In this document: in pieces, positions 28,868 through 34,966 of the stretch
How positions within the stretch are numbered: the stretch's first letter is position 1
Layout of the letters: the number at the start of each line of letters is the position of its first letter
Assembly (NCBI GenBank): GCA_035505375.1
Contig: DATJQV010000068.1
Coordinates: forward strand, 1-53,153
DNA from: a bacterium
GTDB taxonomy: Bacteria > Hydrothermota > Tepidihabitantia > Tepidihabitantales > Tepidihabitantaceae
DNA length: 53,153 bases
Reading direction: 5' to 3'
The notes under the pieces: model-generated
What the model was told of the DNA's origin: nothing
What the model saw: only the letters and a program-made list of their open reading frames with translations
Database searches by the model: none
Program-made: the position numbers and the translations under genes

Positions 28868-29383
28868 TCACGATGGCAGCAGAATCAGCGACAAGGCCAA
28901 CGCGCAGACTGATATGACGCCTGCCACGAACCATGCCAGCGCGCAGTTCACCTTCGTGGCTTTGCGATTCACGATGTCGAAGTTGTTCTTGTAGGCAGCT
29001 AGCCTGATTGCGGCTAGCTTTCTTGGCGATTCCATCCCTTCCTCCGACACTAGTCTCACGAGTTCGTCTTCGTCCATGCGCTGAAGTCCCGTAGCGCCAA
29101 GCGACGACAGGGAAAGGAAGGTCGCCACAATAAAAGTCCCGATGCAGGCAATAAAGGGCAGACCGCGAACCAACCAGAAGACCGCAGTCTGCCACGGGCA
29201 TTCCATCCCCACCGGACGTACCAGAGCGGGCCACCTTAGCGCGACCAAGGACAGCACTAAACCGCACGCGCCCATCAAAGCAATGCCCTTACTTGTCCAA
29301 CCGTCGGAGCGGGTCAGTTCGTGGTCGTACAGCAGCCGGAACTCGTCATCCAGAATGCGGAGTAGCGCAGGATCGGTAGGCAT
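28868..29383 (-). CDS. Three-helix membrane protein next to the graspetide ligase
   Basis: ATG 29383, with GAGGA 4 bases upstream, gives 171 residues. Predicted membrane helices are at about 33-50 (IALMGACGLVLSLVALRW), 67-92 (FIACIGTFIVATFLSLSSL) and 146-168 (CALAWFVAGVISVCALALSL), with acidic and basic helices between them (RMDEDELVRLVSEEGMESP). The frame is open up to 29446. It is the last gene of the accessory operon, 55 bases after the ATP-grasp gene. Layout is somewhat like SLATT-type proteins of conflict systems, but I cannot confirm this. A transport, anchoring or immunity role would be guesswork. Confidence 0.65.
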   Translation of the reverse strand: MPTDPALLRILDDEFRLLYDHELTRSDGWTSKGIALMGACGLVLSLVALRWPALVRPVGMECPWQTAVFWLVRGLPFIACIGTFIVATFLSLSSLGATGLQRMDEDELVRLVSEEGMESPRKLAAIRLAAYKNNFDIVNRKATKVNCALAWFVAGVISVCALALSLILLPS

Positions 29384-29438
29384 TCGTTCCTCGAAGTCCC
29401 GATATGTCGGCTTTGGGGACTGCGCCCTTCCTTGCCGC

Positions 29439-30428
29439 CTACACACGGGCTCTCCCTTGTCTGCTCCTTGAGAGCAAGAACTCTGCCATGTACCTCGTCA
29501 TACCGTTTCTCAGTTCAAGGTCTAGCCAAGCCCATTGTCCATTCGGATTGTTCTCTAGGAACACGTACTCGTGTTTCGGAGTGACCACAAAGTCCATAGC
29601 AGAGAACTGAAGCCCATACCATTCCACGAACTGGCGGCATTTGGCCGCTACCTCGTCTGGCAACTCAAGCTCGAAGTATCGCAGCCCCTGGCAGTTGTTT
29701 CTGCGCCAATCTACCTTGGACGATGCGCTAGCTTGGCTGTCAATGCCCACGGCAAAGATTCGTTCGCCAATTATGGTGACCCGAACTTCATATAGCTTGG
29801 GTACGTACTCCTGAAAGAGGCAGGGCGAGAACGCCACCAGGTCGATGTTGGAGACGTCCGCCTGAGTAACGACCGAGGTGTATATGAGCTCAAGCTTGCC
29901 ATCCGGACACTCGACCGCGCCCGACTTCAGTGGTTTCACGATTCTCTCGCTGCCGCCCGACACGCAGAACCGCCTTGCTGCTTGTGGGTCGGTCGTAACG
30001 AGTGTATCAGGAACTGCGAATCCGACCTCCTGGGCGGCGGCGAGCTGAAGTAGTTTGTCATTCGCGCGTCGGATCACGTCGGGACTACTGACCCAAAACG
30101 AGCGCGCCAACACGCGGTAGAACCCACTCAACATGGCCTCGCACTCCTGCCGTGCGAAGGAGCGGGCCTGCTCATCCACGACCGCCGGCGATACAGATGG
30201 TGGATTAGGTTTGCGGAACCAGACGGTCTCGATGGAGTCCAGAGGAACGTCACCGTGGACTGTATGCAGTAGACCAGTTGCTGTTCCCCCTGAGTAGCGG
30301 AGTTCGACCGCGGCCGATGATGGGTAGCTCTCAGTGTTGAGACGGATGAATCTGCCGCCCAGGACGTTCAGTTCCGCCACGACGAGGTCCGCAGTGACGT
30401 CGTCACTGCCCGTGACAATAAGCAGCAT
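29439..30428 (-). CDS. ATP-grasp graspetide (omega-ester peptide) ligase, MvdD-like
   Basis: A 329-residue RiPP-modifying ATP-grasp enzyme. Family marks are VWFRKP (69-74), a PreATP-grasp to ATP-grasp linker RRANDKLLQLAAAQEVGFAVP (121-140, the VP strand), KPLKSG (165-170), FQEYVPKLYEVRV (205-217), DWRR (240-243), the metal-binding D279 and the closing signature LENNPNGQWAWLDLE (291-305), which is typical of microviridin/MvdD-type ligases. Such enzymes use ATP to join Ser/Thr or Lys side chains to Asp/Glu side chains of a precursor peptide. Its ATG 30428 follows directly on the stop of precursor 2 (TAGATG), tying it to the two precursors just upstream. Confidence 0.92.
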   Translation of the reverse strand: MLLIVTGSDDVTADLVVAELNVLGGRFIRLNTESYPSSAAVELRYSGGTATGLLHTVHGDVPLDSIETVWFRKPNPPSVSPAVVDEQARSFARQECEAMLSGFYRVLARSFWVSSPDVIRRANDKLLQLAAAQEVGFAVPDTLVTTDPQAARRFCVSGGSERIVKPLKSGAVECPDGKLELIYTSVVTQADVSNIDLVAFSPCLFQEYVPKLYEVRVTIIGERIFAVGIDSQASASSKVDWRRNNCQGLRYFELELPDEVAAKCRQFVEWYGLQFSAMDFVVTPKHEYVFLENNPNGQWAWLDLELRNGMTRYMAEFLLSRSRQGRARV

Positions 30429-30572
30429 CTAGTCGGTGTCGCGGCCTTCGCGTATTACGTGAGTGACGGTTGAGGTACCATACGGTTTCTTGGGATCCTT
30501 GCTGCTTAGCTCGGGCTCACAGGGCTCTCGCTTGGTGAAGCACAGAGGCTCTTTGCTCTCGTCAGTCTTCAT
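30429..30572 (-). CDS. Graspetide precursor peptide 2 (47 aa)
   Basis: ATG 30572 has AAGGAG 7 bases upstream; the stop TAG (30431-30429) abuts the ligase start. The peptide has a leader motif PLCFTKREP (9-17) and a C-terminal core with alternating Thr, TSTVT (33-37), followed by REGRDTD (41-47). It lines up with precursor 1 in both regions. Thr side chains and the trailing Glu/Asp are the natural partners for omega-ester bonds. The bond pattern and the processed form are unknown. Confidence 0.75.
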   Translation of the reverse strand: MKTDESKEPLCFTKREPCEPELSSKDPKKPYGTSTVTHVIREGRDTD

Positions 30573-30720
30573 CGTCGTTCTCCTTGCACACTTCTGTTGC
30601 GGTCATTGTGAAAGTATCGCGGCTTGGTGCAGTGGCACCGTCATCCGGGCCGGACTTGACCGGTTCCTTCTTGGCGAAGACAAGTGGGATCGGTTGCTTC
30701 TCTGGCTCTCCCGTAATCAT
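30562..30720 (-). CDS. Graspetide precursor peptide 1 (52 aa)
   Basis: ATG 30720 follows AAGGGAGG by 3 bases. The 52-residue peptide carries the leader motif PLVFAKKEP (12-20), a Gly/Asp/Pro-rich middle, and the core TFTMTATEV (36-44) then KENDDED (46-52). The shared pattern with precursor 2 is PLxFxK(K/R)EP, then TxTxT, then (K/R)Exx(D). Its end overlaps the start of precursor 2 by 11 bases. The open frame can be extended to 30756, but that lacks the ribosome binding site. A leaderless or longer form is not suggested. Confidence 0.75.
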   Translation of the reverse strand: MITGEPEKQPIPLVFAKKEPVKSGPDDGATAPSRDTFTMTATEVCKENDDED

Positions 30721-30768: not shown

Positions 30769-31188
30769 CTACTCATCCGGGTCAATGCTGTGGCCTATGC
30801 CGGCACCAATCGCGGCTCCACCTGCGGCACCCAGTGGCCCCAAGATGGCACCGACTGCGCCGCCGATGACGCCGCCTATCACAGCGTTGCGGCTCTTTAT
30901 CTGCTTCTTCTTGTCCTTGGATAGCGGTGCCTTCGTGTGGCCGTGGGCCGCGCGCACCGTTCGCGACCCCTTATCTTGCTTACTCGTATTGCAGTGAATG
31001 CAGGCCGGATACAAGTTGTTCCGGTGATCTGTCCCGCCTCGGGCCTGCGCTACCGAGTGATCTATGTGCCACGACATTCTCGCACCAGTAGCACCGTAGT
31101 TCTTGAGGCTTAGCTTCTTACGGCACAGATGGCAGTGCCCGTCGGTACGTCTATAGACCCATTCTATCGTCTCTTCATCGAAAGCCAT
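30769..31188 (-). CDS. HNH nuclease with C-terminal glycine-zipper segment
   Basis: 139 residues. The N-terminal 75 are an HNH domain: CHLCRKK and CIHCNTSKQ are the zinc knuckles, and MSWHIDHSVAQARGGTDHRNN holds the catalytic His region. After a Lys-rich linker the last 40 residues form a glycine zipper (GGVIGGAVGAILG, then GAAGGAAIGAGIG) that could insert in a membrane or self-assemble. AAGGAG precedes ATG 31188. It lies 48 bases upstream of the graspetide precursors and in the same operon as the modification enzymes. A toxin or phage-defence nuclease is plausible; the fusion is unusual. Confidence 0.8.
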   Translation of the reverse strand: MAFDEETIEWVYRRTDGHCHLCRKKLSLKNYGATGARMSWHIDHSVAQARGGTDHRNNLYPACIHCNTSKQDKGSRTVRAAHGHTKAPLSKDKKKQIKSRNAVIGGVIGGAVGAILGPLGAAGGAAIGAGIGHSIDPDE

Positions 31189-31413: not shown

Positions 31414-32181
31414 TTAGCTGTCGCTGGCGCGTCGGGCCTCCTCCTCGGTCACAATCTGGAACTGTAGCCTGTAGTAGACGACGCTGATAGAGGGGTTCGC
31501 TGCCACCGCGTACTTGAGCTTCCTGTCGAACTGCCGCGCGACGATCACGCCTCGCACGTCACTGGTGCCGGCCAAATGCTGTTTGATCCAGCCCATGTAT
31601 CTTGACACTTGCCCCACTGCGCTGTCTGACGCCCTGTCGAGTTTCAATTCGACTACCACGAAGTCACCGTTAGGACGGACACAAAGGAGGTCTATCTCGC
31701 CGACGTCGGTCGGGTACTGCCTTCCGGCGCGGCCGGACGCATCCTTGTAGAGCTTCAGGCCGTTCTCAATCGCCTCGACATCACTCGCGACGACATCCTC
31801 AAGCTCGTTCTCGATCCGCGCGACGAACTCCCTCTGGCCCCTGCTTTCCTCTGCGACAGCATTGGCCTCCTTGGGTCGCGCTCCCAGCCTCTCGATGTGT
31901 ACGATGCACTCGCCGGGGTTCACCTGTTCCTGACTGTCGAACCTCACGAGCAAGGTCGCTCCTGCCGAAATGTGACTTTCCCTGTAGAATCGCTGGAGGC
32001 GTTCGATCGCCGAAGGCTTGCTCCTGTGAGCGTTGAAGGAACGGCCCTCCCCGTCAATGACTGTCATTTTCCTAGGTTTCGTGGGCAAGCTCCGGCCGTG
32101 CGTGGCGCCATCGTTGTCCCTCAGATTCAAATGCCCGCCTTTGACCTCGTTTTCCGTTACTGTTCGCTGGAACTCAACCAT
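31414..32181 (-). CDS. NucS-like PD-(D/E)XK nuclease (DUF91 group)
   Basis: A 255-residue protein. The C-terminal 130 residues match the NucS/DUF91 nuclease fold: GEIDLLCVRPNGDFVVVELKLD supplies the Asp and Glu-x-Lys of the active site, followed by AVGQVSRYMGWIKQHL and VRGVIVA. The N-terminal 110 residues are a small beta-rich domain of unknown role with the piece TLLVRFDSQEQVNPGECIVHIERLG. ATG 32181 has AAGGAGG 10 bases upstream. It sits between two remnants of a type IIG gene inside the restriction island, so a part in DNA defence or repair is likely. Confidence 0.85.
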   Translation of the reverse strand: MVEFQRTVTENEVKGGHLNLRDNDGATHGRSLPTKPRKMTVIDGEGRSFNAHRSKPSAIERLQRFYRESHISAGATLLVRFDSQEQVNPGECIVHIERLGARPKEANAVAEESRGQREFVARIENELEDVVASDVEAIENGLKLYKDASGRAGRQYPTDVGEIDLLCVRPNGDFVVVELKLDRASDSAVGQVSRYMGWIKQHLAGTSDVRGVIVARQFDRKLKYAVAANPSISVVYYRLQFQIVTEEEARRASDS

Positions 32182-32214
32182 ATGCTGTTTGCCTCCTTGA
32201 GTCTGTCCTATCCA

Positions 32215-32394
32215 TCAGCACAACCTATGATCCGTCGCGGCAATCTGGCGCTGGAGCGATTCGTGCTCGTGCGGCGTCTTGGCTTTGGGCAAGTCCTTGT
32301 GCAGCTTCAGCATCGTCTCGACCAGTCCGACCATCCTGTCACGCCGCGCCTTGACGGCCTCGTTGAAGGGCCTGACTACCCTGGTCCATCCCAG
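32215..32394 (-). pseudogene. C-terminal tail of a type IIG restriction enzyme (fragment 1)
   Basis: Reading the minus strand after TAA 32397-32395 gives VVRPFNEAVKARRDRMVGLV, then ETMLKLHKDLPKAKTPHEHE and SLQRQIAATD before a stop. This is the same C-terminal region as fragment 2, from a different copy or a duplication, and is shortened before the IDALVYELYGL part. No start codon or upstream domain remains. Confidence 0.75.
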
Positions 32395-32425
32395 TTACGC
32401 TGCAACACGTTGGAATCCGTGTGTC

Positions 32426-33976
32426 CTAACTCCTCCCACGGTCGGCGACACGGAACTCCTGTTCGTCCCAGATTGGACCGTCACTTGAACGGCCCGCCCT
32501 TGACCAGAGGTGCCTCGCTTGGTCGTAGTGCCACCCGCGCTCCTCCAGCAGCGCAGCGAATTCCTGCTTGCTGACCTTGAGCTCATCGATGATGCCCCTT
32601 CTCCAAGCTTCAACGACGATGCGATTGAAAAGGTACTCCCCGTATAGAACCGGGTGGTCTAGCTCCGACAACACCTCGTCAACCATGCCCTCCAAGTGGA
32701 CAGACTTAGTCATTATGGCGGCAGTCTTGCCATGGGTGCGCCCCTTGAAGAACGTGAGAATGAGCTCGCCGGCCAAGACTGATTCCCGGTTCTTCTTCTT
32801 GTGCATCGACCAGATTGGATCACCGACCTGTGATACCGCTGCACGGAGCGACGCACCCGAGTCGCGGGCTGCATCGAGGATGGACCGGAAGTAGGAGACA
32901 TTCCAGTGTTGGAATACGACCGACATCCAACGCCTGTTCTTCAACATGGCAAACGTGGCCACTGTGCTCTGGTACAGTTGATCAGTGTAGTGTTCCTCGG
33001 AGAAGTCCCTCTCACCTCCAACGATAAGCTCCTTGTCGCGCGCATCTCCACTGGGAAGCATACCCAGCCACACATTCCACAGGCAAGATAGGTCCAAGTA
33101 GGAGATATGGCCGCCATATGGTGGGTCGGTAAAGATGTAGTCGACTTTCCCCTTGAGTTCTCGCTGGAGGTCGACAACGTCCTCGCTGAAGCAGAGGAAT
33201 CGGCCTCGCCATCCCTTGGTCGATCTCTTCATTTCGATCGCGTCTACTAGCTCCCTTCGAGCTGCCATGACTCCGCGGAATCGGTTCTGAAACACGGACC
33301 ACGGGTCTAGTTCTACTGGACGTCGCGCCACCTTGTACCGGTAGATGCTGAAGATGCTGGACCCTCCTCGGGACTCAGCCCGCCCGTTTGTCGATATGAA
33401 CGTCCTATTCAGTCGGGAGAGCGTTCCAGACCACGCCAGCATGAGCAAGGATTTGGCCGGACCTTCGATGGCGTCGATCGCGTGTTTGAGAACCGCGAGC
33501 GAACGAAGCTGCCCCAATGTGAAGAGCTCGTGATACGTCGAGACATCCGCGTTCTTTGGCAGGGGCACGTTTGGCGGGAGGAGGATATCCGGAGGTAGAG
33601 ACGGAGTTCGTGTCGTGGCGCGCATGTCTTTCAGCACGCCGCGGCACTGCTCCTCAACGTGGGTGAATGCGGCTGCGGCCTGGCCCGCTGATACGTCTGG
33701 GAGATGCACCAGGCTCTCGACGATGAAATTCGCAAGCGGGTTTATGTCATTATGGATGCCGGTGCGATTCTCTAGATATGCCTCAACCGCAGTGACTCCG
33801 GAACCTCCAAAGGGATCGAGAACGACATCTCCCTCTTTGGAGTAGTGCAGGATGTAGTCTCTCACGACGTTGTATGGCCTTCTAGTGAAGTAGGGGTGGA
33901 CGCCGTAGTGCCGTTTGGCTTCTTGCCTCGCGGCTGGGATTCGCCTCGTGATCGGGCAAATGCTATCGTACCGCAT
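32426..33976 (-). CDS. Site-specific DNA methyltransferase (N4/N6 type)
   Basis: A 516-residue DNA methylase. The SAM-binding motif DPFGGSG lies at 54-60 and the catalytic TDPPYGG at 283-289, so the motif order is I then IV. The motif-IV spelling with Asp-Pro-Pro-Tyr fits N6-adenine or N4-cytosine methylation. The start RYDSICPITRRIPAARQEAK and HYGVHPYFTRRP resembles stand-alone methylases of restriction systems. It ends up 8 bases downstream of the endonuclease gene and is probably its protecting partner. The recognition sequence cannot be read from here. Confidence 0.9.
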   Translation of the reverse strand: MRYDSICPITRRIPAARQEAKRHYGVHPYFTRRPYNVVRDYILHYSKEGDVVLDPFGGSGVTAVEAYLENRTGIHNDINPLANFIVESLVHLPDVSAGQAAAAFTHVEEQCRGVLKDMRATTRTPSLPPDILLPPNVPLPKNADVSTYHELFTLGQLRSLAVLKHAIDAIEGPAKSLLMLAWSGTLSRLNRTFISTNGRAESRGGSSIFSIYRYKVARRPVELDPWSVFQNRFRGVMAARRELVDAIEMKRSTKGWRGRFLCFSEDVVDLQRELKGKVDYIFTDPPYGGHISYLDLSCLWNVWLGMLPSGDARDKELIVGGERDFSEEHYTDQLYQSTVATFAMLKNRRWMSVVFQHWNVSYFRSILDAARDSGASLRAAVSQVGDPIWSMHKKKNRESVLAGELILTFFKGRTHGKTAAIMTKSVHLEGMVDEVLSELDHPVLYGEYLFNRIVVEAWRRGIIDELKVSKQEFAALLEERGWHYDQARHLWSRAGRSSDGPIWDEQEFRVADRGRS

Positions 33977-33984
33977 GTAGCGGC

Positions 33985-34851
33985 TTAGAGTCCCTTGGCA
34001 AGCGCCCCGACAGCCTGGAGCTCAATCACGTCAATGTTCTTCGGAACCTTGGCTAGGTCGTGGACAGCACAGAGGATCACGGCGCGGGATAGCTCATCTT
34101 TCCCGTACTTCTCCATCTGGTACTTAAACCCACTGCTATGTCGTTTGACCTCAACGGGGACATCGTATTCTGGGTAACCATCGAACTGGAATTTGCTTCT
34201 GCAGTCGTAGCCTTTGCCCACGTATGGGCCCAATGAGCAACCGAGCTGAGCAAGCGGGCCGTAAGCACGCAGGATGTCCGGTTCCTGAATATGGGGGACC
34301 TTCTTGACATGGTCATTAGCGATGGACGCTATCTGCCGGAGGGCCCACGAAACGAGACCTCTACCCTCTTTGGCCAGCACGTATTCAAGCTGTTCACGCC
34401 AGAAAGAACTCACGTAGTGGGTCGTAAGAGTGAGCGGGCGCTCTGCGGCCTTAAGAGGCTTGGCGCGGCGGCCGCCGACTTGGCGGTAGGCCGCGGGGGT
34501 TAGGTAAAACGCATCGTCAATGATCTCGATATCAACGTCAATTCTCTCGAAATCGTCGGTGGACAAGCAGTACCAACTACGGATTGACTCGCCAATGCTC
34601 TCCCCGGTCGTGCCTTGCTGAATTCTGTCATGTCCGACTCGGCCGGGAACAACCCGTCTCTTCTTGTCTAGCTTATGGTAGGCTCCTACTGCAGAGAATG
34701 TCGTCTTGGTAGCCCCGTAGGGAGTGACGAGTGCGACCGGGACAGCACCCTTCTTACGCAGGTATGTCTTGACCACTTCCGAAAGGTCATGGAAGTAGTA
34801 CTGAGGCCCGCCGCTCTTGAGGCTTTCCCGTTTAGTCTGTTGAAGGTGCAT
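33985..34851 (-). CDS. Putative restriction endonuclease (PD-(D/E)XK type)
   Basis: A 288-residue protein from ATG 34851. Near the end it has FQFDGYPEYDVPVEVKRHSSG, with an Asp, then E-V-K as in the PD-(D/E)XK nuclease core. The rest matches no family I know; it includes GRGLVSWALRQIASIANDHV. The place next to a DNA methylase is the best evidence for a type II restriction role. ATG 34851 shares a base with the stop of a 27-codon upstream ORF (TGATG); a TTG at 34914 would add 21 residues that look like untranslated DNA. Confidence 0.75.
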   Translation of the reverse strand: MHLQQTKRESLKSGGPQYYFHDLSEVVKTYLRKKGAVPVALVTPYGATKTTFSAVGAYHKLDKKRRVVPGRVGHDRIQQGTTGESIGESIRSWYCLSTDDFERIDVDIEIIDDAFYLTPAAYRQVGGRRAKPLKAAERPLTLTTHYVSSFWREQLEYVLAKEGRGLVSWALRQIASIANDHVKKVPHIQEPDILRAYGPLAQLGCSLGPYVGKGYDCRSKFQFDGYPEYDVPVEVKRHSSGFKYQMEKYGKDELSRAVILCAVHDLAKVPKNIDVIELQAVGALAKGL

Positions 34852-34966
34852 CAGCGTTCCGGGTCTATTCGCCGTCCGGGCGGCGAGAACGGACGGGACT
34901 CGCCCATCAGGCAAGGAACGCTCTGAAGCGTCATCCAGCAGCCCGCGTTTCTACAGGTTCAATCAT
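34851..34966 (-). CDS. Chain of two tiny upstream ORFs (11 and 27 aa) before the endonuclease
   Basis: ATG 34966 lies 5 bases after the -10 box and encodes MIEPVETRAAG, ending in TGA 34933-34931. That stop overlaps ATG 34934 (ATGA) of a 27-codon ORF (MTLQSVPCLMGESRPF at its start), whose TGA 34853-34851 overlaps the endonuclease ATG. Translation of all three would be coupled. No similarity is recognised. Confidence 0.4.

What the first reader, a model, noticed from the sequence alone, without database searches (positions are those of the whole stretch)
29439..30720. A graspetide cluster with two unannotated, homologous precursor peptides
The ATP-grasp gene (29439-30428) has the closing signature of omega-ester peptide ligases. 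Directly upstream are two short ORFs of 52 and 47 residues, the second too short for usual gene callers, which share PLxFxK(K/R)EP near the front and TxTxT followed by (K/R)E and Asp/Glu at the end. They overlap by 11 bases, and the second stops exactly at the ligase start. The core pattern does not look like the microviridin, plesiocin or thuringinin cores I know, so this may be a new graspetide class.
Basis: partly seen in the sequence, partly recalled or inferred. Interest (0 to 1): 0.92.

Follow-up and report, generated by a model that had tools for sequence, protein, structure and literature searches.

The report
Graspetide cassette with overlapping tandem precursors
A bacterium of the uncultured WOR-3 phylum carries a three-part gene cassette (two tiny peptide genes, an enzyme predicted to staple the peptides into hairpins, and a membrane protein) of a known natural-product kind, whose only close relative found is in a very distant Black Sea bacterium and whose peptide genes overlap so that the staple-site codons also start the next gene.

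Summary
The ligase (29439-30428, -) is a graspetide ATP-grasp enzyme, preceded by two homologous precursors of 52 and 47 aa that overlap by 11 bp. It is not chance: the nearest ligase found (Kiritimatiellae MAG, 53%) has four such precursors in tandem. A profile from those four alone picks the two window ORFs first out of 15,804 (E 2e-8, 4e-7).
'New class' is not supported. The core TxTxTxxxxExxDxD has exactly the spacing of multi-core graspetide precursors in Bacteroidota and a Verrucomicrobiota/Kiritimatiellota-group genome, and the leader fits the published 'Phhx(1,2)h' pattern.
What is unusual: a deep, rare two-member ligase clade; leader PLxFxK(K/R)E seen only there; one core per precursor; and one 11-bp overlap at all four precursor junctions, in which the core codons for (K/R)E form the next gene's Shine-Dalgarno and the Asp-x-Asp codons contain its ATG. 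Likely product: hairpins with three nested omega-esters. Cross-linking, product and activity are untested.

The parts
30562..30720 (-). precursor peptide p1 (52 aa): leader IPLVFAKKEP, C-terminal core TMTATEVCKENDDED; SD GGGAGG before its ATG
   Evidence: HMM from Kiritimatiellae precursors E 2.2e-8
30429..30572 (-). precursor peptide p2 (47 aa): leader EPLCFTKREP, C-terminal core TSTVTHVIREGRDTD; stop abuts the ligase ATG
   Evidence: HMM E 4.2e-7
30562..30585 (-). dual-use junction AAGGAGAACGACGATGAAGACTGA: core codons K-E-N-D-D-E-D-stop of p1 contain the Shine-Dalgarno (AAGGAG) and the ATG of p2; same layout at the three precursor junctions of L005
   Evidence: 0 matches in 100 dinucleotide shuffles of the window
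29439..30428 (-). graspetide ATP-grasp ligase (329 aa; TIGR04187-like below cut-off, PF21068 pre-ATP-grasp domain), closing signature FLENNPNGQW
28868..29446 (-). 192-aa protein with three long predicted helices (putative membrane partner), GTG start overlapping the ligase end by 8 bp; homolog in the same place in L005 (38% over 175 aa)

Best explanation
A complete small graspetide (omega-ester RiPP) cassette: two precursors, one ATP-grasp ligase and one membrane protein, apparently translationally coupled in one operon. Proposed mechanism: the ligase binds the leader segment PLxFxK(K/R)E, uses ATP to phosphorylate the core Glu/Asp side chains, and esterifies them with the three Thr, giving a hairpin with three nested lactones (T5-E10 inner, T3-D13, T1-D15; up to 54 Da lost). 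The membrane protein then exports the product, protects the host from it, or responds to it. Shown here: homology of ligase, precursors and membrane protein, conserved spacing, gene layout. Inferred from known graspetides: leader binding, ester chemistry and nested connectivity. Least certain: the membrane protein's role and the product's activity.
For: The ligase matches TIGR04187 at 275 bits, MvdC 223 and MvdD 220, Pfam PF21068 above its cut-off, and solved ligases: AMdnB 7m4s at 1.7e-50, 5ig9, 5ig8, CdnC 7mgv. Six precursors in two phyla share invariant P, F, K, T, T, T, E, D, D. An independent HMM recovers p1 and p2, and its next-best hits are multi-core precursors beside other graspetide ligases. 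Identical core spacing occurs in known-type precursors. The third gene is found by a profile built only from membrane proteins downstream of other graspetide ligases: L005 5e-7, window 2e-6. OEP6-1, a hairpin with three nested cross-links, is described in PMC12291112.
Against: No product or mass data. The ligase is below every NCBIfam curated cut-off. Its clade position is unresolved, so the shared core spacing may be convergent. No transporter, peptidase or GG cleavage site was seen in the cassette. L005 precursor 1 has a loop one residue shorter, so the spacing is not absolute.
Confidence: 0.87

Rival explanations
1. A founding member of a truly new graspetide class, with ring connectivity unlike the known nested hairpins (for example staggered rings, or lactams through the conserved K/R9 where it is Lys).
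For: Deep separate ligase clade; leader variant seen only in window and L005; no NCBIfam or Pfam precursor family matches.
Against: Core spacing identical to cores beside other ligase clades. Position 9 is Arg in three of six precursors (p2, L005_3, L005_4), so a lactam there cannot be general.
Confidence: 0.08
2. A conflict or defence module: the cross-linked peptide controls a membrane effector encoded by the third gene (a PycTM-like membrane protein), rather than being an exported product.
For: Both known loci lie beside defence-type genes: in L005 E1-E2, JAB, MBL and type IIG R-M-like genes; in the window HNH, NucS-like and DNA methyltransferase genes. Some members of the membrane family hit PADLOC PycTM weakly (best 1e-4; window 0.049). 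Some cassettes lie on phage genomes.
Against: Only two loci, weak matches of helix-rich proteins, no nucleotide cyclase or other sensor in the cassette, and no informative fold match. PMC8939145 proposes transport for a graspetide-locus membrane family.
Confidence: 0.1
3. The small ORFs are chance reading frames or remnants, and the ligase is an orphan modifying something else.
For: Short ORFs; the cassette is sporadic (1 of 18 family genomes).
Against: Conserved in sequence, position, overlap and Shine-Dalgarno with four homologs in another phylum.
Confidence: 0.02

Closest known systems
Kiritimatiellae MAG BS750m-G19 locus (JADHWE010000007.1; L005)
   Same: Ligase 53-54% identical; same leader and core motifs; same 11-bp precursor overlaps; homologous membrane protein downstream of the ligase
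   Different: Four precursors instead of two; different flanking genes; itself not described in the papers read here
Thr-Glu/Asp hairpin graspetides (Lee groups 3/5/6; Makarova cluster 13; thuringinin, OEP6-1 type), represented here by L007, L010, L015, L047
   Same: Core TxTxTxxxxExxDxD with identical spacing; membrane protein gene right after the ligase
   Different: Those precursors carry several cores, and in the Bacteroidota a leader such as MRPFVYxFLE at the N-terminus; ligases only 32-35% identical; exact Lee motifs not readable here, so the assignment of L007/L010/L015/L047 to these groups is by resemblance
SAV_5884/TgmB graspetides (TIGR04187 with TIGR04186 precursors; fuscimiditide type)
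   Same: Best NCBIfam profile of the ligase
   Different: Below curated cut-off (275 vs 350 bits); TgmB is a separate clade; precursors do not match TIGR04186; no methyltransferase next to the ligase
Microviridin (MvdC/MvdD)
   Same: Ligase fold and leader-core logic; solved homologs
   Different: One ligase not two; no PFFARFL leader; no TxKxPSD core

Membership tests
graspetide (omega-ester RiPP) cluster | MvdC/MvdD-type ATP-grasp ligase with pre-ATP-grasp domain and E-N-P closing motif | tested here: met
graspetide (omega-ester RiPP) cluster | adjacent short precursor with conserved leader and Thr/Ser...Asp/Glu core | tested here: met
graspetide (omega-ester RiPP) cluster | leader pattern Phhx(1,2)h (PMC8939145) | tested here: met
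   PLVF, PLCF (window); PITF, PLLF, PLAF, PLCF (L005):
graspetide (omega-ester RiPP) cluster | side-chain ester/amide bonds formed (-18 Da each) | not testable with these tools
   needs co-expression and mass spectrometry
Lee 3/5/6-type hairpin group (Makarova cluster 13) | core TxTxTxxxxExxDxD | tested here: met
   spacing compared with L007, L010, L015, L047 precursors; the published regular expressions were not readable, so this motif as the group's definition is from memory
Lee 3/5/6-type hairpin group (Makarova cluster 13) | several core repeats per precursor | tested here: not met
   one core per precursor; repeats are separate overlapping genes
Lee 3/5/6-type hairpin group (Makarova cluster 13) | shared N-terminal leader (M[RK]PF.. 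type) | tested here: not met
   window leader is PLxFxK(K/R)E with its Pro at residue 12 (p1) and 9 (p2)
Lee 3/5/6-type hairpin group (Makarova cluster 13) | ligase falls in the same clade | tested here: inconclusive
   separate 100/99 clade with L005; grouping with the Bacteroidota clade not rejected (p-AU 0.145), nor with all membrane-gene loci (p-AU 0.37)
SAV_5884/TgmB family (TIGR04187/TIGR04186) | ligase above curated cut-off 350 bits; TIGR04186 precursor; neighbouring methyltransferase | tested here: not met
   274.8 bits; no precursor match; downstream gene is a membrane protein
microviridin | PFFARFL leader, TxKxPSD core, two ligases | tested here: not met
Pycsar (PycTM effector) | PycTM match plus neighbouring nucleotide cyclase | tested here: not met
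   window protein E 0.049 only; no cyclase in the cassette

The most novel reading that the evidence does not exclude
A new graspetide group, spread horizontally between distant phyla in defence-type islands, in which arrays of single-core precursors grow by duplicating a unit whose cross-link codons double as the next gene's start signal, and in which the cross-linked peptide gates a membrane effector instead of being exported.
Probability: 0.1. Interest if true: 0.8.

Novelty: new variant of a known kind. Interest (0 to 1): 0.42.

Why it matters
It adds a rare ligase lineage with a compact leader and very short single-core precursors (47 aa), which would be a handy minimal system for making triple-lactone hairpins if active. 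The shared overlap is a concrete case of core codons that appear constrained both by peptide chemistry and by translation start of the next precursor. It also shows that the membrane protein next to many graspetide ligases extends to a lineage found in WOR-3 and Kiritimatiellae, and its role is an open, testable question.

Tried and rejected
Rejected 'new core class': the spacing is identical to cores beside other ligase clades. Rejected TgmB membership: score below cut-off, separate clade, no methyltransferase. Close relatives on plasmids, phages and viral contigs: none; only ligases at about 30-36% identity. Relatives among 346 genomes of L005's class and 388 of its phylum: none above about 225 bits except L005 itself. 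Contig contamination: rejected, because the right flank is syntenic with the same genus and a flank gene is 92-96% identical there. Fold searches with the membrane protein model: only generic helical matches. Junction DNA pattern in viral contigs: 18 hits, none with a core, i.e. chance. Published group definitions: Ramesh 2021 not held, supplements not available, motif text searches empty.

Full report
Observation. The ligase ORF (29439-30428, minus strand) and the two small ORFs (30562-30720 and 30429-30572) are as described, with an 11-bp overlap and the second stop adjoining the ligase ATG. The ligase hits TIGR04187 (275 bits), MvdC and MvdD profiles, Pfam PF21068 and solved graspetide ligases such as AMdnB and CdnC. 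All curated NCBIfam cut-offs are missed, so it is a family member without a named subfamily.

Where it sits. The genome belongs to the same phylum as two candidate division WOR-3 MAGs (L002/L014 and L003/L017). The ligase occurs in 1 of 18 genomes of its family, and relatives in 4 of 147 of its phylum including itself. The right flank from about 36.5 kb is syntenic with same-genus genomes, but the cassette side is not; a flank gene is 92-96% identical in four of the five other genus members. The neighbouring ZnuA at 26.6 kb has only 29-35% matches in the genus, so the region is accessory. GC of the cassette is 56-58% against 61.5% for the window. This fits horizontal acquisition.

Relatives. 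A scan of 84,980 species genomes for two conserved ligase peptides gave 26 loci; only one is close: a Kiritimatiellae MAG (L005), 53% identical over the full length. Upstream of its ligase lie four tandem small ORFs, each with P-(L/I)-x-F-x-K-(K/R) and a C-terminal Thr/Glu/Asp core. An HMM built from those four alone finds the two window ORFs as the first and second of 15,804 ORFs (2.2e-8, 4.2e-7). The next hits (1.6e-5, 1.6e-3, 1.7e-3) are multi-core precursors next to other graspetide ligases.

The core. Five of the six precursors have exactly T1-x-T3-x-T5-x4-E10-x2-D13-x-D15 at the C-terminus; L005 precursor 1 has a loop one residue shorter. Cores in L007, L010, L015 and L047 have the same spacing, with occasional shorter loops. 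[quoted passage not shown] PMC12291112 describes OEP6-1 as a hairpin with three nested cross-links. From memory, not verified here, Lee group 6 has this motif. The core is thus not a new pattern. The leader is a variant of the general Phhx(1,2)h leader.

The junctions. At all four precursor-to-precursor junctions (one in the window, three in L005) the sequence is (AAG/AGG) GAG AAY NNN GAT GNN GAC TRA. The codons for (K/R)-E-N give a Shine-Dalgarno 7 nt before an ATG that lies across the first Asp codon and the next codon of the D-x-D pair. In the last precursor of each array the same residues use CGC GAA and GAC ACC/ACG, which give neither signal, yet R, E, D and D are kept. So the residues are conserved as peptide, while the codon choice follows the junction. 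With four internal and two terminal genes the codon contrast is only suggestive (Fisher p 0.067), and whether the overlaps drive translation is untested.

Third gene. The ORF 28868-29446 starts inside the ligase end. Its L005 counterpart is 38% identical over 175 aa. A profile made only from membrane proteins downstream of ten other graspetide ligases (Bacteroidota, Leptospira phage-like contigs, viral contigs and others) finds the L005 and window proteins (5e-7, 2e-6); the other hits are its own members or lie in further loci fetched through ligase searches. PMC8939145 lists an uncharacterised membrane protein family in thuringinin loci and suggests transport; identity with that family was not tested. 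The AlphaFold model (mean pLDDT 82.7) has three long helices. Weak PycTM similarity in some members leaves an effector role possible; the fold searches did not help.

Phylogeny. Window and L005 ligases form a 100/99 clade with long stems; its neighbours are unresolved. Grouping with the Bacteroidota TxTxT clade is not rejected (p-AU 0.145), nor with all membrane-gene loci (0.37).

Verdict. A real, probably functional graspetide cassette and a new variant of a known kind: new ligase lineage, new leader variant, single-core precursors as overlapping tandem genes. It is not a new core class. Chemistry, product and the membrane protein's role remain inferred.

Noticed in passing
window 30769-31188 (-): 139-aa HNH nuclease-like protein with a C-terminal glycine-zipper stretch, 48 bp upstream of p1 and in the same direction; no counterpart directly upstream of the L005 precursors, so probably not part of the cassette.
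   Followed up: partly
window 31414-34914 (-): NucS-like protein (PADLOC candidate PDC-S02), a DNA methyltransferase and a 309-aa protein without family match that may be its restriction partner: a small defence-type region beside the cassette.
   Followed up: partly
L005 145-5311 and 7970-12726: Flanks of the Kiritimatiellae cassette carry E1-E2, JAB, two MBL-fold proteins, a TM protein, and type IIG R-M-like genes including a T5orf172/ResIII protein: a defence island.
   Followed up: partly
L014 1457-1678, L017 5740-5961: Two WOR-3 MAGs carry a different graspetide locus with a single 73-aa precursor ending TSTLSTHKG(V/I)WSDNDGDDTD(F/M).
   Followed up: no
L067 (Leptospira phage KF114876.1) and L032 4679-6580: A phage-borne cassette of multi-core graspetide precursor, ligase and membrane protein; the annotated 37-aa ORF seems to be only the end of a 106-aa precursor (MKPLIFDY... 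with TKTxT cores).
   Followed up: partly
L047 848-1501: A Verrucomicrobiota/Kiritimatiellota-group genome with two precursors, one single-core (GTSTFSEIRSEALDSD) and one triple-core, both with the same spacing as the window cores.
   Followed up: partly
L009 4581-5218: Thermomicrobiaceae MAG with two tandem ~100-aa paralogous small ORFs (YMFRGVGQI motif) upstream of a graspetide ligase; possible other precursor family.
   Followed up: no
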